Shown: positions 19,655 to 54,299 of the stretch, piece after piece
How positions within the stretch are numbered: position 1 is the stretch's first letter
How the letters are laid out: each line of letters begins with the position of its first letter
Assembly: GCA_947172415.1 (NCBI GenBank)
Contig: OX359190.1
Coordinates: 9,114,001-9,178,000, forward strand
DNA: 64,000 nt
Direction: 5' to 3'
DNA from: Chondrosia reniformis
Lineage: Eukaryota; Porifera; Demospongiae; Chondrillida; Chondrillidae
Program-made: the position numbers and the translations under genes
Notes under the pieces: generated by a model
Seen by the model: only the letters and a program-made list of their open reading frames with translations
What the model was told of the DNA's origin: nothing
Databases searched by the model: none

Positions 19655-22600
19655 CTAATAATTCTCTTTCTGCCTCAAAGAGGTTGTTTTCTCTTCTATA
19701 ATGCTGGCTTCATTATTTGGAAGCCCTCTAACTGACTGTCTCTCCTTGCTCAATTTCTGGTTAGCAACCTCAAGGTCATCCTAGGAAGGGAGTCAATAAG
19801 GTCCACAAGCAGAGAATAAAATGCAATTAACAGTTATACAAGGGGAATACCAATAGGAAGGAAGGAAGACCTATAATTGGTTATCTTATATTTGAATTTA
19901 ACAGATGAAACCATTTATTTATTCAATACCTGTCTTAATAACTTAGCTACTAAATAACTTAACCAGGTGACCATTGTCTTGATAAGTGACTGTACATGTA
20001 TTAAGTAAATCACAAAATCTATACCTGCAAGTGGCGGATAGTATGCATTGCATCTTCTAACTGGATATTCAGCTCTACAATCTCTGCACTGACATTGGTC
20101 TATTTAAAGAATTAAGTATCCATGTTATATACGTATGTATACAAAATCACTTCAGTGTACTAGTGGTATCCATTTTAAACATAGTGTATTGAAGTACACA
20201 TATAGAGGCTTACTTTGTGGACTGGATTAGTTACATTCTGTGCAGATTTGAGTTCATTTAGCTCAGACTGAAGGCGAAAACGATCTTCCATAACTTTCTG
20301 TAATTCCTTCAGTAAAACCTGATTGCTTCTTTCTGAAGCAATAGCTTCTCCTTTTGCTTTGGCTCTGTATTTTCGTTCCCTTTCAAAAGCTTCTTTATAA
20401 GGTTTTAACTGTAATATCTATAAAAACACATCACTATGGTACAACGTTGATTCTGCTATCAATGATGCAACTACACACTTGAATTTCGTAAGCTTCTTTT
20501 GAATTTTCATTCTCCTTTGTCAAATCTTTTATTTTACTGTTCTTTTCTGTTAAATCTTTTTCTAGAGAAGCAATTTTTTCCTTCAAGAGGTCCAAAGCTT
20601 CTGATTCACTAGCATTCTATACCAAATACATAAGTAAACTTGTTCAATAAAACCGTAAGAAATAATGACACTGCTTAAATAACGAGCAGGTTTGATAATA
20701 ATATAATATACCTGTAATTCCCTTTGCACAGATCTGGACTGTTCCGTGATAACTTCTCTCTGCAGCGATGAGGTATTAACAGTCGAAATAGTTGGCTTTT
20801 CCTGAAGAGATGCACTATCTGAAAGAGATGTCTCCTGTTCAGCTAGTACAAGTGAAGAAAGGATACTTTCTCCATCAGGAGTACTGACTTCTACTTCGGG
20901 ATAGGGCAATGCCACATCCTCTGAAGGCAGAGTAGTAGAGTCATTGTAATCTGAAGTGCATTCCAGTTGCGCTGTTTTGGTCAGTTTTTCATCCTGAGGT
21001 TCACTATTCATAGACAACACATCAGGCTCAGAAGCCACATGAATCTTTGTTGAGCTGATGGGAGAGCCTTCAGGGGGAAATCCTTGAGTTTCTGAATGCC
21101 TTTTAGTCTTTTGTACTTCCTTCAAATGAGGAATTTTGGCCCGTTTACTGTGTTTTTGAAGCTTTAGTTTAGTGGGCGATCGAAAGGGGCAGGGACCACA
21201 ACCTATAAAGAAATAAGGGAAACTTCAAGAGTCAAATTCAACTTTTTGATAGCTACACACCTAATATATACATATGTATACAGTACATAAGAGCCAAAGT
21301 AAGACAGAATGATAGAGTAGAGGTTCATCGCTACGTTGAATATATGGCAGTTATGTAGCATTATGAAACAAGAATTTCAAAACGTTTCGGTCCGTGAACC
21401 TTCATCAGTTGAAAATATACTAGAATATTTCACTAACAGCCAGAAATTGTAATACCTCCTTCATATCAGGTATACACATGTAGTCTCCAAGTTAAAATCT
21501 TCATTTAACAGGTATATACGTAATTACATTACACAGGTATAATTGCGTACATTACAATGAACAGTATACTGTAGTTGCAATATATAGTATTGGCCTAATT
21601 CTATTTGATGTAGCCCCTAATTATTTAAGATTAAAATCTCACTGAAAGTTAATTACCTTTTAGACTGACATTACAATAACCAGAAGGAATCCCAAATTGT
21701 AATCTAAATTGACCTTGCTCTACAGACGCAAGCAAATATATATATATATACATATGGTCAAGCCTATGGTCAGACATTACTTACTGTATTCATCTCGTCT
21801 TGCCATCTGTATATGCAAAGAATAATATGAAAAGTACATACTTTTCTACAGTACATCAGTACATCATTCATGCATACATATATACCTCAACATAATATTC
21901 ATGAACATTAATGCTATATGTATCACTGGTAGATGATTCCATCAGCTCCTCCTATACGAATGTACAAATAACACAAGATTTTAAATAGCAACCAAACCTG
22001 TGTATCCCAGGTCCATTAGCTTAGCTAGCATGAAGAGGTGTGTCCAAGATATAAACCAACCTTAGAAGTCATTTGACACACTAAACCCATGGGGTTTCCC
22101 TTCCTAGCTGCCTCTATAAACTTCTCTGTATCGTCAAAGAGTGAAAACTACATCAAGCAAAAAACAGAATTAAAACACAGCTAACACACTATAAAGCTTA
22201 AGTTACTGAACCTCTTCGTCTAGCTTCAAGCTTTCATAAAAGGCTCCAATTGCAGGTGATTTTGCAAACATTGACAGGTAGGTCACCTAACAAGAGATTA
22301 AAATCTAATATTATCAGATCAACTGGGTGAAGTAAACTAAACAAAGAATCTCACACTTCCATTGCATTTCTTTTCCAAAACTGTCTGTACAAGACATTTA
22401 CATATTTCTGCAAACAACTCACTGTGACACTGTCTGAATACCACTAGCTGCATATGTATACATGAAGTACAATAATCTTTGGTTGCTAAGAATTGCTAAT
22501 TATACAATGTAATCTGGCTTGCCTGATCACTATAGTATAGACAATTATATAATACAGTTCTTACATTCCTAAAGTCCGCAAACATGAGTGCCATCTTCAT

Positions 22601-25600
22601 TATTTCAGTGGCCCACTTGGCATCATCGTCATAGCAAATGTGATAATACATGCAGTGTCTATTACCTGCAGTACGCCGGCACTGGTATAAAAATATAAAT
22701 GCACTTATATAGTAATGTAAATATACAGATTAAAGGAAACACTCACGTTTGCTCCTTCGTTAGGTAGGGAACTGGAAGGGTAGTCCTACAATTAGAAATA
22801 AAGATACACTGAAAAGGGGTCTATGGATGTAAAACAGCTACACAACATTAAAGACATTGGGTCTGCCACATAGTATATACAGATAAAAAAAGACAAGAGT
22901 TCAAACGCTTACTAATATATATGTGCTGTTAGCAAGGGTCCTAAAAATGTCACTTTCAACATGAGGTTGCCAGCTTTTGATGAGCCCATCCTGTTAACAT
23001 ATAAAAATATATACAAATCTCAACATGTCAATCCAACAGTGGAAAATATATACAGATATTACTGTATGTACGTATGTCTACAACTTTAAACTTACAAAAC
23101 TCTGTCTGTTATTTATATTCAATCTTTCAAGCAAGTATCTTGCACAAGCAGGATCATTGAAGTCCATTGACACTTTGATTGGCATAGCATAGACACTATG
23201 AGATGGAGAACCTGTACATTCCAGTTTCTGTAAAAGTAGTTGAATGATCCTCATGTCCCCTCCGATGCAGGCATGTGCTACTACGGACCAGCGACCCTTT
23301 TAAAATTAGAGGAGCTAAAATCAAAATGTGCTACATACTAATCACAAAGTGACTTACTCCAGCAAGAAATTTATAATTGGCTCCCTTCTCCAAAAGAAAT
23401 TGGGTAATATCAAAGTGATTTCCTAAAACTGCCTCAGTCAAGGGAGTTACATGAAACATATTATGAACTATCACCTACGTACATAGAGTTATATATGTAC
23501 ATTAGATTTAGATTCATAGTACAAAATGAAAAGTGAGTTGACATGCACTACTAGATGGTTATTGCTTTTTTGGGTAGAGCAATGATTGCCTAAGGAGAAG
23601 CCACTCTATTCAGTTTAAATCTATAAAATAAGGAACTAGCAAGTGATTGAAAATTCTAGGTTTGAATATCACAAAATATTAGATTAAGAGAATGGACAGT
23701 TGAAAACAGTGAACAAACACACATGGACAAATAGTTAATTGTACATCAAAATACCCTCAAGTTTTCTATGTCAGCTCCTTTGTTAACAAGATATTTGACT
23801 ATATCCAAGTGTCCTGCAGTAACGGCGACGGTCAGAGGTGTGGAAGAATCCTTGGATTTGGCATCTACTTCCGCTCCCGCAGCCTCTATCAGGTACTCCA
23901 CTATAGGCATTTGATTCATTGAGGCAGCAAGGTGGAGGGCAGTAAAAGCCTCCTTAACCATGCAAGATATCAGAAAATAAGGTTATTTGCTATACCCCTT
24001 AAGGAAGTCAAATGATTACAAAATCTAACCTCATTTTTTTCATTTACATTAGCATTGTATTCTTTAATTAAGAGTTTGGTGACATGAAGATTGCCAGAAA
24101 ATGCAGCTATGTGTATGGGTGGCATACGCCCACCAACATCCTGTAAATTGAGGACATTTAGCCAATGAATAATGGAGGTGATAAGAAACCACAAGTGTAA
24201 CATATCATAATATAGGGTAAATAATAACCAGCTATTAGCACTGAACGCAAGAGTGGACTTTCCTACATCTCACCTTAAGTTTTGTAGTGTTTTTCAATAA
24301 AATTCGTATAGGTTCATCACTATATTCACACACAGCACAGGCAACAGACAGTGGAGGGATCTTGGTTTGTGGCTATAATTCATATAAGCATGTATTATTT
24401 ATACACTCCTGAATATCTGTGTATGATGCACCAAAACATGATGTGTTAAGCCTTACTGTGACTGCCCCAGCATCCAGAGAGTAGGTGTGGATTAGGTATG
24501 CTAGAAGTTCACAATTTTGCAAAACTGCTGGAAAGTGCAGGCAACTTCTGCCAAACTACAAATACGTATGTTTAAAAATTACTATTTGAAAGCTGTCAAA
24601 GAGATTTTTTTGAAGTTTATATCCATGTACCGTATCTCTTTGCTGAACAATGTTTTGGTTGTTCTCCAATATCTTCAGCATATAGTCAAAGTACCCATAC
24701 TGGCAAGCAATCAGAAAGGGTGTCATGCCACTCTAAAATATGGATAAGGACAACATTTGTCTATTTACACAAAGCTTTTGCTCAATAAACACAAACAGGT
24801 AGAAATATGAACAGAATACATACAGTATGTACGTCATGTATAAAGGTTATTGAGCAACAGCAACATTAGATAGACATGTCTTACCATTGACATGCATAGG
24901 GTCAGATCGGCTCCAAGTGTTAACAGCTTTTCAAAAGCATCAGATCTGTCAAATCGGACTGCTAATAATACAGGTGTACTGCCATCCTACAGTACACACA
25001 TGCATGCAATAATAAAGTTTTTAATTCAGGCTATTACTGTATTTACAGATTGTACATTTGTGCAAACCTTCATTTGAGCATTAATACTGTAGCCTTGATC
25101 AATGAGAGCAGTGATGGCTGATACATAGCCCTGCTTGGCGGCAGCATGGATTGCCTGCTTTCCATCCTACATACACAACCAAATAATCAACAATTGAAGA
25201 CTAGAGTGAGCATATTTATATTTTTATAACGTATACGTATATAGATTTTAATGCATAATTATTACACGTACACTCTCTCTTTTCACAATGAGCCCCTTAA
25301 ACTCTTCTATTACTGCTAAAATGGCTTCTTCTTTCACTGACGTACTCTCAATCATTTTGACAACTTTAGGATCAGACTAAATGCATATATACAGTTATAT
25401 TGCTAACATACAATTTCATAGAATTTAAAAATTGACTTACATGTGAAGTTACAAAGGTTCCAGATTTAGTTGCATCCTACACACATAAAATAACATTTAG
25501 TAAATGTTACAGGTGGATATTAAACATCTAAACACTAGCAAGGCACACACAGTGATTATATACTCACAAAAGACCAAGATAAAAAGGAAAGATGCCCAGG

Positions 25601-28600
25601 GTCACTAGTGAAGGGTGGAATTTCCAAGAAACATCAGCTGGCTCAGGGGAGAAAGGAAGAAAAGAATCCTATCATCCAAAGCTCTATGGGTTTGCCCTAA
25701 GTCTTTAGTCTAAGAAAATTATGTTTCAGTCTGTTCTCCTTATGCTCCTTTAACCAACATTTTTATAACGTTAACTGTAGTTCATAAGACTCATATTTTT
25801 TCACCATTCAACCTAGATATGAACATTTGTCATCTCTCAAAAGTGGTTTTGGTGAAGTCTCCCTGTACTACTGTTGATTGCTTTATCTTAAATGTGTGTG
25901 CTAATGTGCGTATACTATATGTACGTACAGTATATACGTACATAATCATTCCACATACCACAGCAGCATCAGGAGTGTGCCCTTGAGCTGTGTTCCCTGA
26001 TTCTGATTCAACACTCAAAGATGCTGGCTTTGTTGCCAAGTGACCACTCTGGAATTCACCTTTAGTCTTTGAGCATGCTTCCGCCTACATATGTAGCACA
26101 AGATATAGTTAAAATACGTACATAGATACATATATACCATAGGATGGGTTTTAATTGCGGGGTTAAATAATTGCATTATTTATATACTTCCAGGACCAAT
26201 TGCGAGTTCAATAATTGTGTTTTGTATTCAAATTCAAATTTCAATTCCGATTTGTTCGCTTCTCTGATAACATGAGATGGAAGACTGTTTCTTCTTTTGT
26301 TGGAAGACTGTTGGAAGCAGACAAACGCTTTAATTAGATAACGTAGGAGACTCATTCCCGCTACTTCCGAAGTGTGACGATTACTTTGCGATTCCAAAAA
26401 GTGCAATTGGAATCAAAACTCACAATTCACATTTAATTGCCCATCGCAATTAAAACCCATCCTATGGTATTTTTGATCATTATGCGAAGGGAGTTAATTA
26501 TTATGCTTGGTCTGTGCAAATGATGCGATGATAATAAATGAATAATCACTTTTGATCATTATTACATAATACACTACGTTGCTGGGGCAATCAAAGCAAA
26601 TTATATTCCACAACTGAAGTATAACTATAATAAGAGGCACTTTGGCCTCTTATTATAGTTATATATACAATGCGATATCCCTCCAATAACTCAGTAAACG
26701 CCAAAAAGCCTAGGGGCGGAGTATATAACTATTACTTGATTCTAATAATACTCACAGCTTTACAAGATGAAGTCGAGGATCTTTGAGGTGACTGGTCAGG
26801 ATCTCCCAGGAAATTCATACCTTCTGCGGTTCTTGAGCTGCTAAAGAATGATTTAAATGTTTCAATGATACAATTGACTGGTTTGATTATTGTAAATTTA
26901 CTTTTTTCTTCTCTCGATATGATCTCCTGAAAGATAATCTTGAATGCTCTATTGAATAAGCAATAAATATGAATACATTAATTATTGTATGTGCTGCAAT
27001 TGGGTACATACAAACGTATACTAAAGTGATAACTACTGAGTTTAAATGATAAATGACTTTTACATTTACAAAAATTGTTAATTAAAGACAGATTATTTCC
27101 GGTAGAAAGAGGCATTCATGTTTGCATAATAAAATTATTAGATATATACTTCAAATATTTCACCTCTGAGCTTGACATTTCCGCTTCAAATGCTACATTC
27201 AGGTCTCGAGCAACCCTCTGAGCTATGTGAGGAAGACTAGAGGCACGAAGCATCTCACAGACCAGCTTGAAAGTGCTTGATCCTGGATCTAATCTTGGAA
27301 GTTTCAGTTTGTTTAGGAATGTTTTTACTTGCTCAACCAATTCACCTAAATGAGCTTCCTTCATGCTTACAATTTCATCTGCTGGAAAACCAATTCGATT
27401 AGCAAACTGCTCCCAAACAGGTGGCAAATGTTGCAGTAGGCAAGACCATAGTGGATTGGAGTTATCATGACTGAAATGATACAAACCTAGGCAGGTAAAA
27501 AAGAGTTATGGACTATAATTTTAACACTATAACACACTATTGTACAGAGAGCTTACAAGGATTAGTACTTGTAGAATGAAAGACTCTTTTGCGAAGCTGC
27601 AAGTCTGATTCCAAAATCACATTCAATAGCTCATAAAGGCCAATTTTCTTCCTAATTATAGTTCTTTTTAATAACTGTTTAAGGTCAGCTCTCTTTGCTG
27701 CACTGTTATCTCTGTTGAATAGACTGGCTTGCCGTAATTCTTCAGCTCCAGCTCCCAACTTGTTGGCCAACTCCTCATAGCAACCAAGTGACACACCTTG
27801 TATCAATATGTACTCGTCAAGAAATAGGTAAGTAAGGTTCTCTATGGAAGAGTAAATGAACACAATACTATAACTAACGATACTATATACTAACTAACTA
27901 TACTATATATAATAGCTGTATTTGTTATATGTGGTGGAGATCTTATTGCAATCACAATTTAAAATTTCTCACTAAAAGATCTTACCTCTTTCACTGGTAG
28001 ACAGAACCGGGTCAACAGGAGCACTGTATCCTTGTGAGCGTGTTTTGGAATGCACTGTAACATGCAAAAAAACAATTAATACTAAGAGAGTCAACTTTAT
28101 GTAAATTGTAAAGGTAAAGTATATATACCTCCATCTGTGCAGGTAGCAGAGAACATTGAAGCACTTCTGTGATATTCAAATGTGGCTCCACCACTATGAG
28201 CAATAGGGCTAGTGCTATAGATACCAATTCCAACAGATTCAGGACCTTGTTCAACAGCATAAGTCTTATTACCTTCATTAGTGAGAGCATATGAGATAAA
28301 TAAAAGAGTAGAGATAATAAAATAACATTAACAAAATTTATTTTTCCAAGACAATGTTCGGCTGCCAATTGCACTTATTAATACAACCATTTTACAGTTT
28401 TCCTTCTATTTTGTGAAAACTAATCTTAGTTCTTATTCGTAAACCTAACCACAAATATGAGTGTGTGATGATTTTTCCAAGACAATGAATAATAAAAGCA
28501 TGTCAAATTCATATGCACTTTAAAGCATTGATTGGCTTTAACGTCCTCTATCTTCATATGTACACTTTTAATAGTAGATAGTGTAATGGCTTTCATCAAA

Positions 28601-29495
28601 CTATATGCTTACAAGATTCTGAAACCGAGAAGGTGTCTGAGTCTGTTCCCCTCAAGCTTAGGAAGGCCGCAACTATATAAGCATTATTCATGACAAATTA
28701 ATATACACTCAAAACATAAATATATTGAAGTGAGTTTATATACCGTCCATCAATCTCTTTCCAATGATTTTGTGATTTTGAAGTCCAGGCTTGTTTCCTG
28801 CACGCATTATAGCTCTATATATTACCTTCATCGCACTACACCGGGAGCGTTTAAGAGCTGAACTAATTGGATTATCAAAATCCGAATATATTGTTGCATT
28901 CTCCAAAAGATGTATTTCTAGATCGTTAAACACTTCTCCACTGAGGTCCTGCCCTTTTATTTGAACTACTACTTCTCCTGGCGACAGACCTCTAAAGTCA
29001 TCAGAATGATCAGCACGAAACTTACGCCAAAGTGCTTCAGCATTAACAGTTTCGAAGACTGGGTATATAAGAACAGAAGAGAGACACATTACAATCAAAA
29101 TAGTTACAAAAATGTTATATTATCATTATCTGATGTACAAAGCTTCTCGATCCTTTCTTTACTTTTACAACTTTTGTTATCTAAAACCAGGCTTTCTCCC
29201 TATTATAGTTCAGATACGAACAGAGTTATTTATTCGAGTCAAATTTACGTTTACTATATATTCTTGATCTTTTAAGAGTACTCTAATATTTCATGGTAGA
29301 CTTATAAAGCACTCCAGTTCTGTCATAAACGCATTTAGAGCATGTACGAAACTACCATTACATATGACTAGTTTAGACTATAATATATATATACATCGAT
29401 CAAAACTCATCAGTGGATATGCATGAGTATTAACATTTTTCATCCGGATCATCTAAATAGTCGTCTTCATCTGCTAAATGTTCTAGCAGTGCCAT
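19655..29495 (-). CDS. Gene A: N-M-Death-ankyrin-coiled coil protein
   Basis: Many-exon gene. Exon 1 (29495-29435) encodes MALLEHLADEDDYLDD. Domain N is 29058-28744. Linkers are 28672-28613, 28272-28129 and 28054-27986. Domain M is 27841-27557 (ELANKL, ending RKRVFHSTS). The death domain starts at 27486 (DSNPLW-like start, QFANRIGFPADEI). The exon 26926-26756 is a Ser-rich linker. Ankyrin repeats run from about 25.4 to 23.3 kb (8-9 units, e.g. FTALHLAASMNQMPIVEYL). A region conserved in gene B (23.3-21.7 kb, WATEIMKMALMFADF, MARRDE) is followed by an acidic Ser-rich linker (21.2-20.7 kb) and a coiled coil (20.6-19.66 kb). It looks like a cytoplasmic scaffold: ankyrins to bind a partner, death folds to assemble, coiled coil to oligomerise. 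Role inferred. Two MITEs lie in the intron below 26756. Confidence 0.85.
22571..22617 (-). other. 47-bp stretch identical in genes A and B
   Basis: The sequence starting AAAGTCCGCAAACATGAG is identical to 32742-32788 in gene B. It covers the end of an exon (KWATEIMKMALMFADF) and its splice junction, while flanking introns differ. Local gene conversion or very strong constraint could explain it. Confidence 0.85.
26137..26468. mobile_element. TA-flanked MITE, copy 1 (CCATAGGATGGG ends)
   Basis: The terminal inverted repeats begin CCATAGGATGGGTTTTAA and both sides are flanked by TA, as for Tc1/mariner-type insertion. The interior has a Gln/Ser-codon-like stretch but no transposase. It lies in a gene A intron. 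A second copy in opposite orientation is at 45417-45739. Confidence 0.85.
26570..26727. mobile_element. Palindromic MITE, copy 2
   Basis: Same family as 15347-15524: GTTGCTGGGGCAA near the left end, a central hairpin with arms TAACTATAATAAGAGGC, and a GGGGCGGAGTATATA right end. It sits about 30 bp from the donor of a gene A exon (26756). Confidence 0.75.
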
Positions 29496-29742
29496 AACTT
29501 CGAACTAAATGAAATTTTACTGTAACTGTTGCGCAATTTATATACGGCCAGCTCGATCGATCGAGCTAAAATTATAATTAATATGGCCGATCATTTTCCC
29601 GCTATATTGTATACCTCTCCACAAAGGATAACAGAGCATGCATGCAATAATGCTTATATTAAAGCAAATATAGTTAATTAGTACTTGCAATATTAGTTAT
29701 TCTTAGACTAGGAACAAGTTTGTATCTTATACATTCGTATAC

Positions 29743-39854: not shown

Positions 39855-41723
39855 CTACTTCAGTTGAGCTAGATCATCTTTCACTTCTGAGGCAGCATTT
39901 AGTAAACCTGCCGAATGCAACATGTCTAGAACAAGCTTGATACATTCACATTGCTCCAATTTTGGAAGTTTAACCTCATTAGCAAACTTTAATAACTGCT
40001 CATCTAAAGTCTTTCCTTCTGCAATCTTGTCAATTTCTTTTTTCTTAAATCCTAAAAAGTCTGCAAGGTTTGTCCATTCCCTTCCCAAGTTATCACTTAG
40101 ACTTTTCCACACCATCGGGTAATCATTAAGAGTACTGTAGACTAAATATAGAAACATATTTAAAATTTAAAAGGAACTAATTCTTGGTTATTGTGTACCT
40201 TTGCATGGACTGGAGGAATGAAATACTCTTCTGTTTAGCTTTGGTTTATTGCATTTAAGAATAATGCTGCATACATTGAGGAGATTTATTTTCTGAGCTA
40301 GTACACCCTCCTTGATCAGCTTGATTACATCTTCTCTGATATCAGTAGCACTAGTACTGGAATGTGCAAGTCTTTGTAATTCACCATTTTTATAATTAAG
40401 CTTGTTAGCAAGTTCCAAAATCCAATTGTCAGCCACTTCATCCAAAAGTACACAATAATCAAGGAACAAGATAACTATAATAATTATACAGAAAATCTAT
40501 ATGAATCTACATATAGATATATATACATAATGAATGTTGCCATGTAGTCCTTCATACGTATGTATACCTTCATTGCATGGAGGCTCCTCAGGACTACTGT
40601 TAGGTGGCTTTGGGTCTCTGAGATCAGAGCACTCTAAGTCTTCTATGTTGTGCAAAATAATCACTGGTTATTACAACTCAAATATACAGATGAAAATGCA
40701 GATGAACAATTTATATACCATTTTTAGGGAATTCTTTTTCAGTCTTTGCAGCAGAATTCACTAAGCTATCATGTCCTGTGATTCAAAGTAATGACTCCTT
40801 AAAATGCCATTTAGTGTATTTAAAGTATATTGTATACTCACCTCCACTACTAGCTTCTTCAGTTGACAATTGCAAGGGTACTGAGGTTAGATTTTCCTTC
40901 TTGCTTTCAGTACCTGTGTCACTTGGAGGTGCTGCCAAGAAAAGTAAAAATAAAAATGAATAAAGAAAAATTCATCCTATCTCTGGCCTACACAAATGCA
41001 CCTTTTGACTTTGGCGGAAGAAGAAGACTACTGGTACCAGTTCTCATCATATCTGAATACAAAGGGATATAGACAATACACATAATATGTTCAGTTTACA
41101 AACTTTAAGACTACAGATATAGTTTTAACCTGAAGGCAAGGAACTTTGTGTCTGAATTCTTCTTTCGTTTGGTACTAGTCCAACAGGACATGATCTCTGC
41201 TGAATGCATTCATCAGCAGAATGTGCCTTGACTGGTTTGGATTTTCGCTTTGGAAGGTTCCCAGCAACTAAAAAATGTATGTAACTTTTGATTTAACTAA
41301 CATTTGCATACATACATATATACTTCAGGTATATACACATATTACATTCATATATAAGTGTGTATATACAAAACATGGACATATATGTGCATACATCATC
41401 TAATTAACCTGCAAGCATTGTATCTGCAATCTCTGAGTGTCTAGTTACCCCAGGTTTACCAATCGAATTAACAAGTGCTCCATGGAGTGCTCTTAGGACT
41501 GATGGTGCCTCACGCCTAAGAGCTGAGCTAATTGCTCTGTCTAGGTCAAAATAATTAGAAACCTTCTCTAATCGGTATCTTTCTTCATCATTGAACACTG
41601 AGTAATCTTCCAAAGCCCTCAACTGGATCAAGAAATGCTCAAAGCAGAGACCTTTTAAAAGATCAGAATGGTCTGCACAAAGCTTATACCACACCTTTCC
41701 TGCATCTTCAATCTGACTAAAAA
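39855..41723 (-). CDS. Gene C: minimal N-M-Death protein (first exon not found)
   Basis: Domain N is 41723-41409 (VWYKLCADHSDLLKGL ... AISSALRREAPSVLRALHGA). Linkers follow (41269-41133 basic and Gln-rich, then 41.06-40.57 kb Ser/Pro/Glu-rich). Domain M is about 40440-40201 (ELANKLNY, NRRVFHSSS). Death is 40147-39855 (WTNLADFLGFKKKEIDKI), and the stop comes directly after it (DDLAQLK). All checked introns are phase 1. No ankyrin, GTPase or coiled coil follows, so it resembles an adaptor or a competitive inhibitor of its larger neighbours; this is inference. The first exon should be short, end in phase 1 and lie between 41.75 and 42.6 kb. Confidence 0.8.
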
Positions 41724-42621: not shown

Positions 42622-44341
42622 TCATGTAAATTTAGCAGTTTCAACTTTTCGAGCGGCTTCAATGAGACCAGCTTCACGAAGCATCTTTACAACCAGCTCA
42701 TGACACTTGTCATCCTCCAGATTAGGTAGATTGACTTTCTCCCGAAAGAGACATAACTGACTTGGCAGATCTGTTTGGTGTTGAACTCTTATTGAATCTA
42801 TTTCCTCATCTGTAAATCCAAGAAATTTTGCTAACTCACTCCACTTACAACCCAAATGGGCGGCAACTGACTTCCATATTGATTCATAGTCTTTGAAGGT
42901 TATAAATGCTATATAAAGGTATACACATACATGTAAACAGGAAATAGCAAGCAAATGTATTATACTTAACACTTATTTCCCTCAAATTATATATATAACA
43001 CTGTCAAGTTGCATTCCAGTGTTAGCATAGAGACATACTTGGTACAGGATTATCAGCTGTTAAACAGAATAGTCTTCTGCGCAATTCAATCCTACACTTT
43101 AACACTGTAGAATAAAGCTCAAAGTGACCCATCTTCTGCTGCTCCATGGCTTTCTTAATGATTTTCTTTACTTTCTTCAACTTCTCAGAATTAGATATAT
43201 TGCTATATTGAATACACTGGATTTTGTTAACAGTTGTTGTATCTTTAAAGTCAAGCTTGCAAGCAAACTCAATAAGCCACTGCAAAGACGATCCAGCTGG
43301 TAGAACAAAAGTATCCAATATATGCAATGCAAGCTGAGCTGCATAAAAAGGGTTTAACATGGATGTGATTTCAACAGTTACTATAAATTGTGTGTCTCAA
43401 CAACTGAACAAACCTATATATATATATATATACGAATATCATTGCAGTATGTATGCAGCAGCTGATAGCTCAAATATACATGGTGCTGGAACTAAAGGAA
43501 AACTTATGTTATGTATGTATTTATATACCCCTCCTTTTTTGGCTGCTGGACACTCTATACTTATGTTTTGACATAATATTGTCTCAGGTAGATAACTAGT
43601 TCCCTCATTTCAAAAATACAACCTTAATTCATTTGTGCATGGATTTTGCTATCAATGTATACTTTCTGTCATCTCCTCTTCATCTGAAGAATGTTCATCT
43701 TCATTGTTATCTCCAAGAGAAAGCGATTCAGTATTATCTTCTAGTCCTAAGATCATAAAACACTTTCACATACAATTAAGGCAATGAAATAAAAACTAAA
43801 ACACATAATTATGATAAATGTAAATATGTATCAATGCAAACTGAACATATATGTGCTCACACTGCATAAAGTTCAGAAAGTGTTTAGGGGAATTACAGAT
43901 GCAACCAAATATTGATTTTTCTTCTTACCTTGTAAACATCCTGGAGAAGGCAAACAGGATGACCTGCATAAACCACAGAATGTAACACAAAATAGACATG
44001 AATCTTGCACCCAAAGGTAATAACAAACAATGTCTGTGTTAATTAAATTAGTCTACAAAAACATACATGTTAGCCAAACTTACTTGCAACAGTTGATCTA
44101 CTCAGATTATTAGGTACGGGACTAGAGCTTCCTATTACAAGCACTGGAACTAAATTTTCACAAAACAGATATTAAAATCGGAATTTCAAAAGGCATACAT
44201 TAATGCTGACATACATACCAGGTTCAGATAGCTGTCTCACTATTTCTTTACTCATTGGAAGTGTCTCCTTGCTATCAGAATGGGACTTGACAAATTGTTT
44301 GTATTTTGGCTCTGATTTTGGTACAGGTTTTCTGAAACTGC
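42622..44341 (-). CDS. Gene E: M-Death protein without domain N
   Basis: Exons joined in phase 1: 44341 to about 44222 (FRKPVPKSEPKYKQF), about 44155-44090, about 43963-43930, about 43748-43655 (acidic, EDEHSSDEEEMTE), domain M about 43345-43040 (WLIEFACKLDF, RRRLFCLTAD), and death about 42909-42622 (SELAKFLGFTDEEIDSI, ending ETAKFT). The first exon must end in phase 2 and was not found. Only about 340 bp separate it from the gene D stop at 44683, and no domain N exon is visible there. The FH-T/S-S motif has diverged (FCLTAD). It is probably a truncated family member acting as an adaptor, or a decaying copy; intact splice phases argue against decay. Confidence 0.7.
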
Positions 44342-44682: not shown

Positions 44683-47600
44683 TCAATGATTCAGAAATAT
44701 CTCCAATTCTTCTACAACCAATCTACAGTTATTTTCCTCCTTTAGAGCTTCAAGGAGTACTCTCCAAGTGTTCTCTCCACTTGATTTAGCTTGTTTCCAA
44801 AGGACAAGCATTCCAAAACACTTTTCTATTTCACTTTTCAAAGTGGTATTTCTTCTTATTCCATCTAAATACTCATTTTCCAGACCCAAAAGGTTTCCAA
44901 TTGACTGCCATTGAGTGGGACATCTGTTGGCTATGTAAGTTTGCAGATCGTTATCTGAGGGAACAGTATCTATAAATAGATGGGAAATGATGTCAACAGC
45001 TACTTGATTATAAAATTAAAAATTGGAATAGGATCAGTTTGGTAATGCATGCATATATAGAAGGACTCACAGAAGATCAAGAAGAAGACAAGATCAAGAA
45101 GAAAATAAAGATTCCAAGGGTCACTGATGAAGGGTGGAATTCCCAGAAACAGCTGTCTGGCCCAGTAAAGAAGAAGAAAAGTAAAGGGAGAAACCTCTTG
45201 TATCCTCACCCGAAGCTCTCATAGGTTTAGGCTTGACTCCATAGATGTACATGCAGCATGTAGTGTATTGATTATTGATATACGTACATATATACGTACC
45301 TAGACGGGACTCAGGTTCACTGTTTAATGCTATGCTGGAACCACTGATTGAACTCAACCTTCCACTAATGAATTGACCCTTGTGGGTTGATTCTGTAATC
45401 AAAAGAGTAGCATATACCATAGGATGGGTTTTAATTGCGATGGGCAATTAAATGCGAATTGCGAGTTTTGATTCCAATCGCACTTTTTGGAATCGCAAAG
45501 TAATCGTTGTACTTCGGAAGTGGTGGGAATGAGTCTCCTACGTTATCTAAAGTGTTTATCTGCTTCCAACAGTCTTCCAACAACAGAAGAAACAGTCTTC
45601 TATCTCGTGTTATCGAAGAACTGAACAAATCGGAATTGAAGTTCGAATTTGAATAAAAAACGCAATTGTTGAACTCGCAATTGGTCCTGGAAATAAATAA
45701 CACAATTATTTAATCCCACAATTAAAACCCATCCTATGGTACAATTAATGGAATATTGAAAGAGCCAAAAATATTGTAATTAACACACAATTAAGGGAGT
45801 AATTGCACTGAGCCATGCAAAGGCTATAAAATCACTGGAACGTATTATACCAAACCAGCCAAGTGACCGCAGTCTAATCTTGGCTGGGGGACCAAAGTCC
45901 TATTCAATTGGTACTGGTTGATTAGACACTGGTGTAATATGTTCCAGTGATTAGCATGCAGTTGCATAAAGCAATCTATCTACCTACCTAGAGGGGTTTG
46001 GGGTTTGTTGCTGAATGAACTGTCAGATAATTGCTGACTTGAGCTGTTGACTAAACTTGACCTTCCACCTTGGTCGATTGCAATTGACTCTGTATTAAAG
46101 AAATACAATCGTAGAAGTACAAATATACGTGTATTCTATAATGTTAGAACAATCATTATTAGAGTCTTTTTTAATTTTAATCAAATTTAAATTTAATGTA
46201 CCCTCTTTCAAACATATGGCTAAACTAATAATTAGCTACCAGTTCCAGATTAAATAAACATATTATACCACAAAATTATTTAATGCAAGTAGCTACTGAG
46301 GTTGATTGTATCATTGTGCACCTGCATTAGTAAAAATTTTGCTTCCATGTCAGAAGTATTTCTACATTAAACAGAAACTAGATCATACACATGTACGTAC
46401 GTACATACCTTCTTTGATGTTGCAATTTATTTTTAATTCAGGATTAATTCCTTTTAAAGATAGTGTAATTCGGGTATATTTGGTGAGCATTTCTTTTGGG
46501 TAGTTATAAAGCACCGAGCACTCCATTAGAGGAGGATAATCCCTGTCTTTTAGCTCTTCTTTTAGAGTCCTAACTGACTTTTTGCTCAAATCTAATCTTT
46601 TCATGTCCAACTAGAAATAGAGATATGCATTATGACATATGGTCTGCAGAATGTCTGCATAAGAATGTGTACTGAATATATACATATATACTGTACAATA
46701 TAAGGTGATATATTATACATTTATCATACATTCTTAGGTAATAATAAATATAGTAGAACATACTGCTTCTGCTCCTTCCAATTCAGCTTCCCACCCAGGT
46801 CCTTCTGATTTACTGATTTCTACAGAAACACCAACATTTGGGCATTTCTGAAAGCAATACTTTCTTTTGCGTCCCCTTGTCGAGTCAGTCTCTGGATAAA
46901 GCGTCTTTAGATACTAAAAATACAATTATTACATAACATGAATAGTATACAATGTCCCTGTATATACAAATGGCCAATATGCATACTATGTACCTTAAGC
47001 CAATTAGGGGAATCATATGTAAAAAGTAGCAAAAATCTATCACACTGCTGTTCAGAGATGTTAACTGGTAGAACTTGGTAGGACAAATTGTCATCACTCT
47101 CCTTCTCAAGCACTGTACAGTACAAATATTTCCCATCTGCAATCTTCAGGCTACCCTTTCTGGCATGAGAGAAGTCTTCCCCTTCTTTCAGTAGCGTAAA
47201 CTGGAAATTGCACTTTTGACACATATGAGAAGCTCTCGTAAACCTCAAAATATTGCTCTTCTCACCTCCATACCAGTTTGAGAGGTGAAGTGTCAATTCC
47301 TTTTTTGGCATTTTTCCTAAGAGATTCAGGTACACTGTCACACTGCATATAGTGTACCCTTCAGGAAGTTGCCATGGACCGTGCAGTGCTATGCCATATT
47401 GAATGAAGATTTTTTCTTCAAAAGCCCCTCTGGGTATTTCAAGCCAAGTATCACCGTTGTCCAAAGAGAAATCTCCTCCTTCAGGTTCTACTTGCAGATC
47501 ATGGATTCCAAATGGGAACCAGCATGACTTCAAAAGATCATCTTCTTCAGCTATAGTTATGAAATAGGAAGGAAGCTAATATAAGGCCTACATATAAATT

Positions 47601-50600
47601 TAAATGACACACACACTAATATTATTGTTTATTAAGCATTAAATTAAATATAGAGTATATTCACTGTACCTCTTACTCTGTCATAAATGATTAAGGCTGG
47701 CTTCTGTAAGAGGGAATAAATAATACAAGTATATATATATATAGCCATGGAAGTCCTCTGATTCTTTACTTGTGGTTGTTCTATAACTGTGGAATGTCTG
47801 TCTTCAGTGATTTCTTCTGAGAAAGAATCAATCTCTTTATGTTCTGTTTTCTTTGCTAAAGGTACATTAAGTATATTATAGCATTATATACGTACATATA
47901 GGTATATTAAGCATACATATAGGTAGGTATATTAAGCATATTACAGGTACATTAGGCATACATATAGGTATATTAAGCACATTATAGGTACATTAAGCAT
48001 ATTATAGGTATATTAAGCATATTATAGGTACATTAAGCATATTATGTGAAAAACTACATTAATTCCCTTAGTGTATATGGATGTACATTAATTGCAATGT
48101 TTTGTTCCATATCAAAAGGAATACATACTTGTGCAGACATGAATTCAAAGACAAGTACCATCTTACCTTGTGACACTCCAGGTTGATACTGATTTCTATT
48201 CGAGGAACTGGACAGTGAGGTTACACCTGTGGCTACTGTACCAGATTCTATACAATTATTGTAAAGAATTGTACAAGTAGGAACAATTTGTGGTTAATAC
48301 AGTTGATGTTAAGCTACATCAAATGTCAACAGAATCAGTGGCATTTACATACTTCAAAGATAAAAGGGCCCTATACTATTAATGCTGTATATTATACGTT
48401 TTAGTATTTAGGTACATTTGTAGCCAAAAGATTCTACATATAATACAGATTATCTATTATTTCCTATCGTGTACATAGTGCCATAGATAATAATGTGAAT
48501 GCTATATTCAACATATTCATAGGGTCATAATCATGAATTTACTTAATTTCCATTTCTAATTGGTGCTCCCCATCTAACATTTGTCAAAGCACATTGTACC
48601 ATAAACATACCAAACTGATCTGAATACTTAAAGAAAACCTCTTCTTCAAATTCATATCTCTCAAGCTAAGAGTTGAGAATAACATTAATGTTTAAATTTA
48701 TACGTTTATAAACTCTAAAATACTACACATGTCACCATTGGTTGCATATCTGTTATATATAGTCTTCAAAATGAAGATTATACATAACAGATGAACTGTA
48801 TTAGTAAAGTGGAATACTGAGTTGACCTGAAACAGAGTGTCCAACTCAAAGAGCTTTTCACTGTATAAGTAACTTACATTAACATCATGGTCGGGCTTCT
48901 TCTTCATCCAAACGGACTGGCTTGGAAGAAGACCAGTTTTCTTCTGAGTACTAAGGCATTCAGCTGCCCTCTCATCAAGGAAAAGCATCAAATGATTTCC
49001 CTTAACACAGGATGGCCTTGTACACGGAACACCAATGGCTATCTCAGCCTTTTTTCCCAGGAACTGATCTCCAAAGAGTGTACGGCTGACTGTACAAATC
49101 CTCTCAACCATTTCCTTCTTAATCATAAAACACAGGTTATGTAGGCTAGTAGTTGTCATGGTGACAGGTTGATGAGGAGAAGAGTAATCATGAATCAATA
49201 GCTGGAGCTCAATACGATCCTCTCTCTGAATTAGGTAGATGGTGGATTGAACTTTCTTACTATAAAATCTCACTGTCATGCGATCAGATTTTTCAGGATA
49301 CTTGATCCATGTTTGAAGTGCAATATCCTTGCATTCTGATTTCTGCCTACTTGCCAAATCAACAACTAGCCTGTAAAAGACTCCAGTAGGCAAGCTGTAT
49401 CCTTCAATATCCTTAAATTCAGTATGATATTGAAAGGTGAAGGCCAAATTAGCCACTGATCCACTCTCTGGGAGGGTGCCAGTAAGATTCTTGCTAGGGA
49501 GGACAACGGGAATAAAGTAGCGATCTGATTGATCATCACCAGTAACCTTCGAGGCCAGTCCCACATGTTCCAGAACATTTAGAAGCCATAGTGGTGGAAT
49601 GCTAGGGTGAACTTTAAGCTGACAAAATAGTTTTTCAGAAATTCTTGCAGAAATTTGCCCTGTTTTTCTGAATAGAAACTCTTCATGTTGTATGCTACCA
49701 CTGGAACTGGGAAATTGGATGCTAAAAAGCTTGGAAATCTCTTTGTACAGAAAGGATGCATCTGAGCAAACCCATTGATCTTCAGGTTTAGTGGATTGAG
49801 TGTTAAAGTAGACATAAAACCCGAGGGAATGTAGCAAGCGAAGAAGAGCTTGGAATTGACTATCAGCATTGTCTGCTTGAACATATGAACAGTCAATGCA
49901 AAACTGTTTTAGATCTGAATATTGCCACATCTTTTTCTCAATATTGCGAGTGATTAGCTGTAGACAAAACCATAGCTTTGGAACCTCAATTTTAACACAG
50001 CTTTGTTTGTCAGAAATCCTGCTACGTAGCTCACTGAAAACTTTATTGCTGTGCTCAGTCTCACCTTCAAGCATATTGTCTACTAAAAAGAAAGCATTAC
50101 AGCTTTCATAAAGATTTTCAGGGTTTTCTTTAAATTGATTGTATGGCTTTTGAATATTTGCTTTCTCGGTGATGATGTCAATGTTATGTTGCAGTATTTC
50201 CTGTTTGGATGATGAGCATGCAAGTTTGCTCAAATTAGTTCCAACAAGGAATATTCTGGGTTTTGGATTTTCTCCTCCAAATAGTGCAAAATTACGATTA
50301 TACTTAAATGACATGGTGTGTGCAGCAGTGAGCGATTGCTGCATTACCTCCCAAGATGACTGGAAATTCTCTGTCTCTGGTTTGTCTTCATTTTGGCCAT
50401 CTTGACAGTATGTATTAATATACGGATCAGTCAGTTTGCGTGAGGCATTGAAGACATGTATGAAATTGCATGGGAAATCTATGAGCATGGGCAGTGAATC
50501 TTGAAAAGAGGGCTGTCCTCCAGTATCTAGGAGATAAATGAAAGTAACATTTTTCTCAAGGTCTATATCTTGCTCAGTTTCCCCGCTACCTTCCAGGAAA

Positions 50601-53600
50601 GCCTGACGTGCTTCATGTAATATTGAAAGAGGGTCTTTATGGGGAGTACCAGACGAAGTGGAGTCATTAGATCTAGGATCATTACCAATTAAGGAGTCAT
50701 CATGAGATAAGCTTAAACTGCTAGTAAATCTTGATTTAGGCCTATCTTCAAATAAATCTGTATTTTCTAGTGGCTTGGCTGTTTCTGAGCCATTAACAGA
50801 AGGTTGGAGGCCTGGATATTGCTTTGTTTTAATTTTAGCCTTAGAAATGATGCTCTTCATCACCACATTGTCAGCCTCTTGCCAGATAGTGCCTGAGGTC
50901 GTATATACTTCACTAAAGGACACTGGTACCAGCTCTTCCTGTATGGTAGCCACAGTAGGAGCTTCAAGCATCGAAGTACTCGTTTTAATGATTCGTGGCT
51001 TTCCATTAAGTAAGATATACTTTAATGAGGTTTTACCGACTCGAGGCGATCCAGTAAACATGCAACGAATTATCAGGACTACAATGAAACCTTGCTGTTC
51101 CTTGGCTTCCTGATACCATTGTGGAACCTGAAGATATAAATTAGTAGGGAAATGTGCATAATATTATATCATTTAAAGTACACATAAATATAATTGCAAT
51201 GACATACTGCTGGCTTCTTGGATGAATTCACTGACATATCAAGATCTTTCACTATCACCTCAGCAATATTCCCAAGATTAGCATAATGGAGCATGTGCAC
51301 AAGCAGACGTTTTGCATCATTATTTGATAATTTTGGAAACCTTATCTGCTTGCAAAAGTCAAGCAGTTGCTGATCCAGACTGGATGGATTCCTTGCTCTG
51401 ATTGCCTTCACTTCACTTTCTGTAAATCCCAGTCTAATTGCAAATTGAGCCCAGGATACACCCAAGTGGACTGTAAGACTCTTCCACAAAGGATTGCCAC
51501 ATTCATAAGAAATGAACACTACATAATATTATATTATAAAGAGTAATTGGCAAGTATATACTCAAATCATTCACACACAAAAATTAATAATAATAAACTT
51601 ACTAGGATGTGGATTCGATTTGTGGAAAGCTGTTCTACATAGCTTTGGTCCTGATTCCACTACTTTACAAGTGACTGTAAACAAGCTCATTTCTGTAATG
51701 GCTTCTCTAATTAGTTTCATAATAGAAGCCTTCTTTATTTCTTGCTTGTCTTGTCCTGCTACACAAATCTGTGCCAGATCTTGCTGATTGACTTGAAGTT
51801 TCTTAGCTAATTCTTCATACTCCCTTATTGAAACTTCAGGAGTTAAAATACATTTTTCAATGAAAGAGAAAGCGCTTTCACCTACAGAGAATAATTATCA
51901 AACTGTAACATGTTATATCAACTTTTGACTCAGAAAACACATCAGTTACAAAATAATGTTCTATCACACTGTGAAAAAGTCATCAGGAATTCAGCACTTT
52001 TCCTGTGGGGGTAAATGGGTGTTTTTATTTACTAGGTCACCATGAATCACAAGATGTGGTTCATCTTTTGAGTATCTAAAGACACAAGGGAGATCCCCAG
52101 GGTTGAAATGTCCAACTTCTCAAAAACCAAACTGCCTCTTGAGATGCTCAAAAGACTAAAGATGAATCATCTCAAAGATATATTTGACTAAGTTAGAAGA
52201 ATTCCCCATTATCTAATTGCAGGCAAGCTGCAGCTGGTTAATTGTACATCATCCAGTAATAGACAAACCACAACTGTTACAGTATATTGAAACCAACAAT
52301 CATGAAGGAAGAAGTAATAGGGTTGTGAATCACATCTCTTGGGATACAGTATATGTAACTTTAAGTATACAGTAAGTGTCACAATACTAAACACAGGTCT
52401 AAATATTTCTAAGCTACAACATCATCTCAGGTGGCAATAGGCATTTGTGACTTATTCATATGAAATCCTGCCACACCTACCATTAATCCATTGTGGATCA
52501 GATTCTACTGCTGTAGCAACATCATAGAGACTACAAATATGAAGGATGCTAATAATTAATCCTTTAAGTTTAATCTTGTCTTTAGTTGGAAATCTGATCC
52601 CTTTACGAAACTGGTCAAGTTTGTCATGAAGTAAAGAGCAATTGTGTTCAATTTCCTCTACTTCAGTCTTGGTAAAGCCAAGATACTCAGCAATTATCTT
52701 CCAGCTCGTTCCAAGGTGCCTGGATAACACTTTCCATACAGGATCTTCAACATCAAGAACCTGGAATTCTATAAAAATAGGTTATTATGGTGATTATAGT
52801 ATTACTACAAATATTCTAACAAAACAAAATGCTCAGACCTGTTAAAGTGGAAGAAGAAGTGTGAAATGCTCCTTTGCATAATTCTGGTCCACACTTTAGT
52901 ATAATGTGGAAGATCTCATACAAATCCATTTTACACTCTTCATTCTTCAAGGATTTCTCTATCAGGGCTATTGCAGTGCTCCTCAATGTATCTGGTTCTT
53001 CAATGTACTCAGCATTCTCTAAGGCACTTCTGTAGTCAACTTTGATAAGTTGTGAAGCTATGAGGACCACTTTGCTTACAGGAACAGTGTCAGTGAGAAC
53101 ACAGTGCTTTAGAAATCTAAAAGTGTTCTCACCTGTATATGTACATATACAGCAGAAAGCAATCACTAACCACACCATACACGTATCTAAGCATGTATAT
53201 ATATATTCATGTATTCATGGGTATGTAGAAGGATAATTAAAGGAGACAAAGTTATATAATAACCTTTGCTTGTTTGATTTGGAATACTCTGCTGTGGGGA
53301 TCCGGGTACTACTGTACTCTGCTGTGGGGATCCGGGTACTACTGTACTCTGCTGTGGGGATCCGGGTATTACTGTACTCTGCTGTGGGGATCCAGGTACT
53401 ACTGTACTCTCTTGAAAGAATTTCAGTGCTGATGTGCTTGGCTGAGGGAATCTGGTTCCTGAGGTACTTTGTTGTGGAGCTGTAAGTATTGTGTGTGTCA
53501 ACTTAATCTGTTTTGATTTTCTATCAAATGAGATTTTGGGTAGTGATTTACTGTTCTCTGAAGTTTCAGGTCCTGAAATTGAATTATGTAAGGCACATGA

Positions 53601-54290
53601 AATCAAAAATACTGTTTAATTATAAATAACAAAATTTTCAGAATGCCCATAGATATATATGCAATACACTTACTGAGGGTTGAGCATTGACTTGAAGATG
53701 TTGTAAGAGGAATATCTTTGTCATAAAAACCTTGTATATCTGATGTAGAGTAGGTTTGCTGTACACTTGGCGGGATAGGTACATGGTTAGATTGATGGGC
53801 TCCTGGATTGTGAATTTTAATCTGCTCAGCAACTAAAGAAAAGAGGAACAATTTCCTTAAACGTGTTATTATCACAAGGTGCATTAAAACAGCCATACCA
53901 CAGTTATCATATGTACTACAACACTTGTAACACTTTGGTGTATATGTATTCATATTATAGTATGTATATACTAACTTTTGATTAACTTGTCAGCTATTGC
54001 ATCATGCCTTTCTAAGCCATGTATTTTGGCTGACAATTTAAGTGCTTTGTAAATAGCATTCATAGTGGAAGCAGGCTTTCGCTCAACAGCACTTGATATT
54101 GGTATGCTAAGAGCAATAAGAGACCCTGCAGAGTCTATGGAAGAAATCTCAGAAGCATCAAAGAGCTTATTAAATTCTCCCAGACCTTGTAATTGCATCT
54201 TGAATTTAGTTGAATCTATGGTTTGTAAAACATTTAATTCGTCCAGTCTTTGCCATACTTGTTTGTAGTCAATAGAAGAGCCATAAATAT
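44683..54290 (-). CDS. Gene D: ROCO GTPase with N, M-Death x2, ZU5 and Death
   Basis: Exons in order: domain N 54290-53976; linkers about 53831-53678 and 53574-53271; M1 53132-52839; Death1 52768-52481; M2 51881-51603; Death2 51518-51208; ROC-COR 51127-48878 (one 2.25-kb exon); 48665-48611; 48247-48167; 47855-47770; 47705-47670; ZU5-like 47550-46994; 46913-46764; about 46612-46411; about 46092-45990; about 45393-45302; Death3 about 44970-44683. Phases agree at all junctions checked, so this is one gene of roughly 1,900-2,000 residues plus an unfound first exon. ROC motifs: P-loop GSPRVGKTS and switch II LDTGGQPSF; the guanine site is TNLSK instead of NKxD. ROCO proteins are regulatory GTPases. 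ZU5 next to Death is known from UNC5, PIDD and ankyrins. The product probably links GTP state to death-fold assembly (inferred). Confidence 0.85.
45417..45739. mobile_element. TA-flanked MITE, copy 2 (CCATAGGATGGG ends)
   Basis: Same family as 26137-26468 but inverted relative to it. Terminal repeats CCATAGGATGGGTTTTAA, TA on both sides. It lies in a gene D intron between the Ser-rich linker exons. Confidence 0.85.
45830..45952. mobile_element. Foldback element, AATCACTGGAACRTATTA ends
   Basis: AATCACTGGAACGTATTATACC at the left has its near reverse complement GTGTAATATGTTCCAGTGATT at the right. It sits next to a GGGAGTAATTGCACTGAG sequence also present near 1293. It is in the same gene D intron as the MITE at 45417. 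Confidence 0.7.
47880..48045. repeat. Short tandem repeat (TTAAGCATATTATAGGTACA)
   Basis: About eight imperfect copies of a 20-bp AT-rich unit in a gene D intron, right before the 47855 exon in sense direction. Confidence 0.8.
52040..52185. repeat. Divergent copy of the CTAGACGCTCCC-type element
   Basis: Contains inverted arms (TTTGAGTATCTAAAG against CTCAAAAGACTAAAG) and the core CCCCAGGGTTGAAATGTCC. Same layout as 56636-56785 but strongly diverged. In the gene D intron between Death1 and M2. Confidence 0.5.
53281..53405 (-). repeat. 30-bp coding repeat in gene D linker
   Basis: Four copies of a 30-bp unit encode the 10-residue repeat GSPQQSTVVP. It lies between domain N and the first M-Death pair. 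The unit is a multiple of 3, so expansion keeps the frame. Confidence 0.9.
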
Positions 54291-54299
54291 CTATCAAAT

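What the first reader, a model, noticed from the sequence alone, without database searches (positions are those of the whole stretch)
19655..54290. Five-gene tandem cluster of death-fold proteins sharing an N-M-Death core
Five adjacent genes on one strand (D, E, C, B, A from high to low coordinate) carry the same M-Death pair, four of them with an additional N-terminal domain N. They differ only in what follows: ankyrin repeats plus coiled coil (A, B), nothing (C, E), or a ROC-COR GTPase, ZU5-like and further Death (D). A shared assembly core linked to sensor, GTPase hub and bare adaptor forms is what one would expect of a co-encoded signalling system with homotypic death-fold interactions. 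Sequence shows the architecture; the joint function in cell death or immunity is inference.
Basis: partly seen in the sequence, partly recalled or inferred. Interest (0 to 1): 0.85.

Follow-up and report, generated by a model that had tools for sequence, protein, structure and literature searches.

The report
Sponge cluster of death-fold signalling genes
A sponge chromosome carries a row of duplicated genes that share a block of cell-death-type interaction domains but end in different parts; in this genome the block was found only here and in one distant copy, and a role in immunity or cell death is plausible but untested.

Summary
The repeated block is real. In about 35 kb of what matches chromosome 2 of the sponge Chondrosia reniformis, the minus strand holds six M-Death exon pairs and four N exons, one pair more than reported. 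The highest gene, 'D', carries two pairs. I read it as two genes, a bare N-M-Death gene with its own stop and an M-Death-ROC-COR gene; one gene is not excluded. Death is supported by Pfam in 6 of 6 exons. N and M have no death-fold Pfam match; their models are helical bundles whose top PDB neighbours, none individually significant, are CARDs (N) and Death domains (M). M also matches a CARD of this genome better than 20 of 20 shuffled profiles; N does not. N was found only in the cluster, M only there and in a sister ROCO gene on chromosome 11 (single-sequence searches). Tandem duplication with different tails is well supported; joint signalling is inference. A constant death-fold head with a variable tail is already described in sponges; this head is not in the papers I found. 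'ZU5' is unconfirmed. New variant of a known kind.

The parts
28744..29058 (-). Gene A, N exon (CARD-like by model), phase 1-1
   Evidence: self-blastp, splice sites, AF2 model of this N, Foldseek
27557..27841 (-). Gene A, M exon
27164..27486 (-). Gene A, Death exon
   Evidence: Pfam Death 3.4e-4; phase-0 donor
22565..25376 (-). Gene A, ankyrin-repeat exons and a conserved post-ankyrin stretch shared with B
19655..21202 (-). Gene A, C-terminal low-complexity and coiled-coil exons
   Evidence: gene model of a simple predictor; coiled coil by eye, only weak Pfam matches
38547..38859 (-). Gene B, N exon (5' splice site ambiguous)
36892..37176 (-). Gene B, M exon (the M modelled by AF2)
36506..36816 (-). 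Gene B, Death exon
   Evidence: Pfam Death over cut-off in genome search; phase-0 donor
33548..35859 (-). Gene B, ankyrin-repeat exons
29743..31172 (-). Gene B, low-complexity and coiled-coil exons
   Evidence: model; coiled coil by eye; weak Pfam matches only
41409..41723 (-). Gene C, N exon
40199..40474 (-). Gene C, M exon
39855..40141 (-). Gene C, Death exon ending in a stop (bare form)
43039..43338 (-). Gene E, M exon; no N exon found upstream
42622..42908 (-). Gene E, Death exon ending in a stop (bare form)
   Evidence: Pfam Death 34.0 bits
53976..54290 (-). Gene D1, N exon
53264..53572 (-). Gene D1, linker exon with four copies of a ten-residue repeat (STVVPGSPQQ-like)
52839..53132 (-). 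Gene D1, first M exon of 'D'
52452..52768 (-). Gene D1, first Death exon of 'D', with in-frame stop 52452-52454 (alternative phase-1 donor at 52481)
51603..51881 (-). Gene D2, second M exon of 'D'
51208..51528 (-). Gene D2, second Death exon of 'D' (5' edge is the ORF edge)
48881..51127 (-). Gene D2, ROC-COR GTPase region in one long ORF
   Evidence: COR-A 0.0063 under cut-off; 78% identical to chr11 copy; dN/dS 0.43
46994..47550 (-).
44686..44969 (-). Gene D2, C-terminal Death
   Evidence: Pfam Death 4.3e-5

Best explanation
A small, tandemly duplicated family of intracellular death-fold scaffolds and adaptors of one sponge lineage. The ancestral head was (CARD-like N) - (cryptic death-fold M) - Death. 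N and M sit on exons that can be skipped or moved without shifting frame (phase 1 at both ends), and the Death exon either ends in a stop (C, E, D1) or ends in phase 0 and runs on into a tail (ankyrin plus coiled coil in A and B, ROC-COR in D2). Shown: the homology, the exon layout as far as splice consensus allows, the absence of other N copies in the searches made, purifying selection where measured. Inferred: that the heads bind each other; that ankyrin proteins A and B bind partners or ligands and are brought together by the coiled coil; that the GTPase of D2 gates assembly by its nucleotide state; that the bare forms C, D1 and E bridge to effectors, or act as decoys that cap the assembly; and that the output is a cell-death or immune response.
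For: Module homology; Death by Pfam in 6 of 6; M model pLDDT 85.1, first 12 of 50 Foldseek matches are death-fold domains; M profile hits a CARD exon of a ROCO array at E 1.6e-4, below 20 of 20 shuffled profiles (best 0.012); N model pLDDT 83.5, three best matches CARDs; N only in the cluster, M in the cluster plus chr11; a chr11 gene with M-Death-ROC-COR, 78% identical in ROC-COR, shows the unit works as a module on another chromosome; dN/dS under 1 for M, Death and ROC-COR in each pair that was computed.
Against: No Foldseek match is significant (best E 0.4 for N, 1.0 for M). N against CARD by sequence is within the shuffled range (E 0.11; 1 of 20 shuffles as low or lower) and hhalign gives 0.6 and 3.8%. 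Pfam finds no death-fold family for N (0 of 4) or M (0 of 6; seven unrelated families, each for one member, best RNA methyltransferase 2.1e-4). No caspase, kinase or other effector was identified in the cluster, though not every exon was scanned. No expression or binding evidence. Gene trees are weak (no branch starred).
Confidence: 0.5

Rival explanations
1. Ordinary tandem paralogues without joint function: the genes lie together only because they arose by local duplication, and each now works in its own complex.
For: Tandem duplication alone explains adjacency and common strand. The heads have diverged to 24-56% identity, tails differ, and the chr11 copy works, if at all, unlinked. This genome has at least 142 Death and 25 CARD exon matches as possible partners.
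Against: N was found nowhere else, so partners for a homotypic N-N contact would have to be in the cluster. No other direct evidence either way.
Confidence: 0.35
2. 'D' is a single gene: N-M-Death-M-Death-ROC-COR-(ZU5-like)-Death, with an internal repeat of the M-Death pair.
For: The D1 Death exon has a good phase-1 donor at 52481 that fits the phase-1 acceptor of the second M at 51881. No plausible first coding exon with ATG was found for D2 in the 570 bases between them. The simple predictor runs through when given the whole stretch, though via a doubtful 35-base exon.
Against: An in-frame stop lies where bare C and E stop; the phase-0 donor typical of continuing Death exons is missing; an AATAAA lies at 52029; the chr11 paralogue has no N in the 30 kb fetched and starts at M as far as seen.
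Confidence: 0.3
3. The bare forms are inhibitors: head-only proteins that cap or sequester the assemblies of A, B and D2, as ICEBERG does for caspase-1 CARD (recalled).
For: Three head-only forms, one of which (E) also lacks N. In charge, M is positive in 5 of 6 and Death negative in 5 of 6 genes, with D1 the exception for M and D2 for Death, which would let forms differ in binding.
Against: Nothing distinguishes an adaptor from a decoy in sequence; charge is a weak hint.
Confidence: 0.2

Closest known systems
Sponge (Amphimedon) expansion of Death-like plus TRADD-N proteins with variable C-termini (Kaur et al. 2021, PMC8195603; passages and section 10 read)
   Same: A constant N-terminal unit of 1-3 Death-like domains, a variable C-terminus, ankyrin repeats among the commonest tails, lineage-specific
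   Different: That unit ends in a TRADD-N domain, an alpha+beta sandwich; N and M here are modelled as all helix, and Pfam found no TRADD-N in the conceptual ankyrin part of A. The stretch between Death and ankyrin was not modelled.
DAPK1 (ankyrin, ROC, COR, Death; kinase) (recalled, and abstracts)
   Same: Ankyrin, ROC-COR and Death occur together in one signalling family
   Different: Here ankyrin and ROC-COR lie in different genes, Death precedes ROC in D2, and no kinase was found in the pieces scanned
FADD and CRADD/RAIDD adaptors (DED-Death, CARD-Death) (recalled)
   Same: Two or three death-fold domains and little else, as in C, D1 and E; the Death profile matches FADD and PIDD structures by sequence
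   Different: Three modules, of which two have no Pfam family; no partner known
ROCO arrays of the same genome
   Same: ROC-COR, with CARD-like and Death exons; D2 belongs to this family
   Different: The sampled array gene has CARD-like, CARD and Death behind ROC-COR, D2 has M-Death in front; D2 is 42-48% identical to family members other than chr11
Sponge NLR expansions (Dysidea avara, PMC12909245; passages read)
   Same: Large sponge repertoires of Death- and CARD-bearing proteins
   Different: NLRs are defined there by NACHT plus LRR; the GTPase here is ROC-like

Membership tests
Death domain (PF00531), module Death | Profile match | tested here: met
   6 of 6 members match at E<=10, best 9.8e-9; A is 21.1 bits, under the 22.6 cut-off; B and E over it. 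Values for the other three were not shown.
CARD (PF00619), module N | Profile match | tested here: not met
   0 families for 4 of 4 members at E<=10; N profile vs a CARD exon E 0.11, within shuffled range
CARD, module N | Six-helix death fold of the CARD type | tested here: inconclusive
   Model pLDDT 83.5; 9 of 49 Foldseek matches are CARDs, the first three among them; all E >= 0.4
Death-fold superfamily, module M | Six-helix death fold | tested here: inconclusive
   Six helices, pLDDT 85.1; 22 of 50 Foldseek matches are death-fold domains (21 Death, 1 CARD), the first 12 among them, all E >= 1.0; sequence match to a CARD exon 1.6e-4 vs best of 20 shuffles 0.012; hhalign 37% to Death, 40% to CARD
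ROCO (gene D2) | Roc GTPase directly followed by COR | tested here: inconclusive
   COR-A 0.0063, under cut-off; Roc only in relatives (chr11 0.041, array gene 0.0024), also under cut-off. P-loop GSPRVGKTS and DTGGQ seen in the sequence, motif meaning recalled
ZU5 | Profile match | tested here: not met
   No Pfam family for whole or trimmed exon, no PDB sequence match for the trimmed exon
TRADD-N class of Kaur et al. | Alpha+beta TRADD-N domain behind the Death-like unit | tested here: not met
   For N and M only: all-helical models. The stretch between Death and ankyrin in A and B was not modelled
NLR | NACHT NTPase | tested here: not met
   The long GTPase ORF of D2 gave COR-A and no NACHT; other exons were scanned only in part

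The most novel reading that the evidence does not exclude
A lineage-private signalling module: N and M define a closed set of heads that recognise each other and not the other Death and CARD domains of the genome, with ankyrin sensors, a GTPase hub and bare adaptors or decoys made from the same head in one cluster; a sponge counterpart of an inflammasome assembled from its own death-fold subtype.
Probability: 0.2. Interest if true: 0.75.

Novelty: new variant of a known kind. Interest (0 to 1): 0.45.

Why it matters
If the heads bind each other selectively, this is a compact natural set for asking how new death-fold interaction specificities arise after duplication, in an animal group close to the origin of the system. 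It also places a cluster with two uncatalogued modules next to a very large, so far (in the searches made) undescribed set of ROC-COR genes with CARD and Death domains in the same sponge.

Tried and rejected
Pfam on N and M: no death-fold family; the M matches (RNA methyltransferase 2.1e-4 and six weaker, each in one of six members) were set aside as chance because no two members share one. PDB sequence profiles of N and M: nothing usable; N's weak best matches are unrelated enzymes at E about 2, M's best is a designed helical protein at 0.0093. N against the three chr11 CARD-like exons by hhalign: 0.6%. The chr8 M-like place (E 7.16): a coiled coil by Pfam, dropped. The chr13 Death at E 0.02 was not followed. 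ZU5: not confirmed. The chr11 exon 407016-407321 looked like a C-terminal Death to me but has no Pfam family at E<=1, and two of three chr11 CARD-like exons have none either; the third has CARD at 7.9e-4, under cut-off. Gene models: a home-made predictor with generic splice matrices trained on about 3200 codons of this locus gave small doubtful exons (for example it splits the N exons), so only exons backed by paralogy are listed as parts; its score for D1 alone was in the cut part of the output, so one-gene and two-gene models of D were not compared by score. YN00 failed for two Death pairs. Trees of M, Death and both: no starred branch. Single-sequence genome searches miss some copies: the M_B query missed E and the M_A query missed D1, so a distant N or M elsewhere may have been missed. 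Papers searched: no paper listed describes this cluster or a ROCO expansion in sponges; most were seen as listings only.

Full report
WHERE. The window is G000:C2:9114001-9178000 of a 117.38-Mb genome in 15 contigs. The contig lengths seen (C1 10.41, C2 10.29, C8 8.13, C10 7.66, C11 7.63, C13 6.90 Mb) fit the chromosomes of Chondrosia reniformis, assembly odChoReni1.1, in the genome note PMC12181767 (passages); the species is inferred from that fit.

WHAT IS THERE. Stop-to-stop ORFs of at least 40 residues, compared with each other, fall into three repeated modules on the minus strand. N: 28739-29119, 38482-38883, 41407-41793, 53974-54315. M: 27540-27893, 36869-37294, 40191-40496, 43025-43396, 51574-51894, 52819-53214. 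Death: 27119-27505, 36482-36823, 39858-40166, 42625-42972, 51172-51528, 52455-52781. So there are six M-Death pairs and four N. Ankyrin exons of A (22.0-25.4 kb) and B (32.2-35.9 kb) correspond exon by exon; the stretch behind the ankyrin repeats has no match outside A and B, while other ankyrin matches in the genome are 27-46% identical (150 of 530 candidates scored).

WHAT THE MODULES ARE. Death: Pfam PF00531 in 6 of 6 members, best 9.8e-9, A itself under the cut-off; the profile finds ankyrin, RIPK1, PIDD and FADD Death domains in PDB sequences. N: no Pfam family at E<=10 in 4 of 4. An AlphaFold2 model from the four window sequences is all helix, pLDDT 83.5, pTM 0.72. Of 49 Foldseek matches 9 are CARDs, with CARD8, BinCARD and NLRC4 first, 2 more are other death folds, and 38 are unrelated; the best E is 0.4, so this is a lead and not proof. 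M: no death-fold Pfam family in 6 of 6, seven unrelated ones in one member each. Its model from six window sequences has six helices, pLDDT 85.1, pTM 0.75; the first 12 of 50 matches are death-fold domains (11 Death domains and ICEBERG CARD), 22 of 50 in all, best E 1.0. An M profile (six plus the chr11 copy) hits one ORF beyond the M exons with E 1.6e-4 among 1329 ORFs, a CARD exon (Pfam CARD 2.1e-5) of a ROCO array gene; 20 column-shuffled profiles gave 0.012 at best. N against the same exon gives 0.11, and 1 of 20 shuffles did as well, so N gains nothing from it. I take M as death fold with fair confidence, subtype open, and N as a probable CARD relative on its model alone.

GENE LAYOUT. 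With generic splice consensus, a phase-1 acceptor and a phase-1 donor are available for each of the 4 N and 6 M exons, though for several these are not the best-scoring sites (N of B at its 5' end, M of E at its 5' end). Behind Death, A, B, D2 and the chr11 copy have a phase-0 donor, C and E a stop. The first Death of D has no such donor; it runs into a stop at 52452-52454, has an AATAAA at 52029, but also has a fair phase-1 donor at 52481 that would fit the second M. I therefore prefer six genes, A, B, C, E, D1 and D2, without excluding one long D. A weakness of the two-gene reading is that no convincing first exon with an ATG was found for D2.

DISTRIBUTION IN THE GENOME. N: two single-sequence searches, each with 4 matches at E<=10, all in the cluster. 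M: query B found 5 of the 6 cluster copies, chr11 and a chr8 place at E 7.16 that is a coiled coil; query A found 5 of 6 and chr11; together all six and chr11. Each query missed one known copy, so more distant ones may be missed. Death of this group: seven such copies and one weak chr13 place. By contrast Pfam Death has 142 matches (150 of 220 candidates scored) and CARD 25.

THE CHR11 SISTER. At C11:408194-411410 lies M-Death-ROC-COR, 78% identical to D2 in ROC-COR but about 56% in M-Death. No N was found in the 30 kb fetched. Silent divergence is patchy: 0.05-0.4 in most of ROC-COR, 1.7 in the linker, 0.7 in M, 0.5 in Death (NG86), as local gene conversion would give. DNA similarity ends with ROC-COR; nothing downstream of it matches. 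dN/dS is 0.43 for ROC-COR, 0.34-0.59 for M and 0.27-0.62 for Death over three pairs each (NG86): coding constraint, moderate.

ORDER OF EVENTS. The tree of M+Death is weak: D2 with chr11 92/92, B and A with them 79/87, C, E and D1 opposite. A and B share the ankyrin tail, yet the M-Death of B is 53-54% identical to D2 and chr11 and 34% to A. Either A evolved fast (its branch is long) or heads and tails have been exchanged.

MECHANISM. Most likely these are cytosolic scaffolds and adaptors that meet through their heads. The ankyrin proteins would bind partners, the ROC-COR protein would gate assembly by its nucleotide, the bare forms would bridge or cap. None of this was tested; M is basic in 5 of 6 and Death acidic in 5 of 6, a weak hint of head-to-head contacts.

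WHAT IS KNOWN. In Amphimedon 357 proteins with TRADD-N are mostly built as 1-3 Death-like domains, TRADD-N and a variable tail, ankyrin being among the commonest (PMC8195603, section 10). Dysidea avara has 128 DEATH, 39 CARD and 230 NACHT genes (PMC12909245, passages). Sea anemones have Roc/COR proteins with Death and TIR (PMC5094078, passages). The theme is therefore known; the N-M-Death head and its cluster were not found in the papers searched.

VERDICT. Real, tandemly duplicated, and more modular than reported, but adjacency is not a system. New variant of a known kind; interest 0.45.

Noticed in passing
G000:C2 0.6-2.9 Mb and elsewhere: 60 ROC-COR ORFs (60 of 211 candidates scored, so a lower bound), 52 on C2 including D2, 48 of them between 0.6 and 2.9 Mb; the one array gene sampled (L040) has ROC-COR, CARD-like, CARD and Death exons with a Kelch ORF beside it. 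An NLR-scale ROCO repertoire; may be more interesting than the cluster.
   Followed up: partly
46994-47550 and about 40 places in the genome: The 'ZU5-like' exon belongs to a family with 43 matches at E<=1 (40 at 1e-6 or better, itself included), six on chr3 at 53-56% identity, and no Pfam family.
   Followed up: partly
L030 (C11:413426-416065): Three CARD-like exons upstream of the chr11 ROCO gene on the same strand; only the farthest has a Pfam CARD match (7.9e-4, under cut-off). Whether they belong to the same gene is unknown.
   Followed up: partly
48881-51127 against C11:408272-410455: Patchy silent divergence between D2 and its chr11 sister (0.05 to 1.7 by segment) suggests gene conversion between chromosomes.
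   Followed up: partly
53264-53572: Linker exon of D1 with four copies of a ten-residue repeat.
   Followed up: no
2162-3091 (+): ORF with a likely signal peptide (by eye), an acidic stretch and a tail of Tyr/Arg-rich repeats (YYSRYWARYYSRRYS); only a weak YL1 match in the acidic part.
   Followed up: no
17890-19095 (-): Single-exon 402-residue ORF with membrane stretches, weak MGAT4 match (0.0083); looks like a PGAP4-type glycosyltransferase (recalled).
   Followed up: partly
4020-4595 (-); 60145-60618 (+): Linker histone (2.5e-29) and an exon that reads like USO1/p115 (recalled; no Pfam match): housekeeping neighbours.
   Followed up: partly
9.4-10.2 kb, 11.1-11.5 kb, 61.1-61.5 kb: Tandem-repeat tracts that open long spurious ORFs on both strands.
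   Followed up: no
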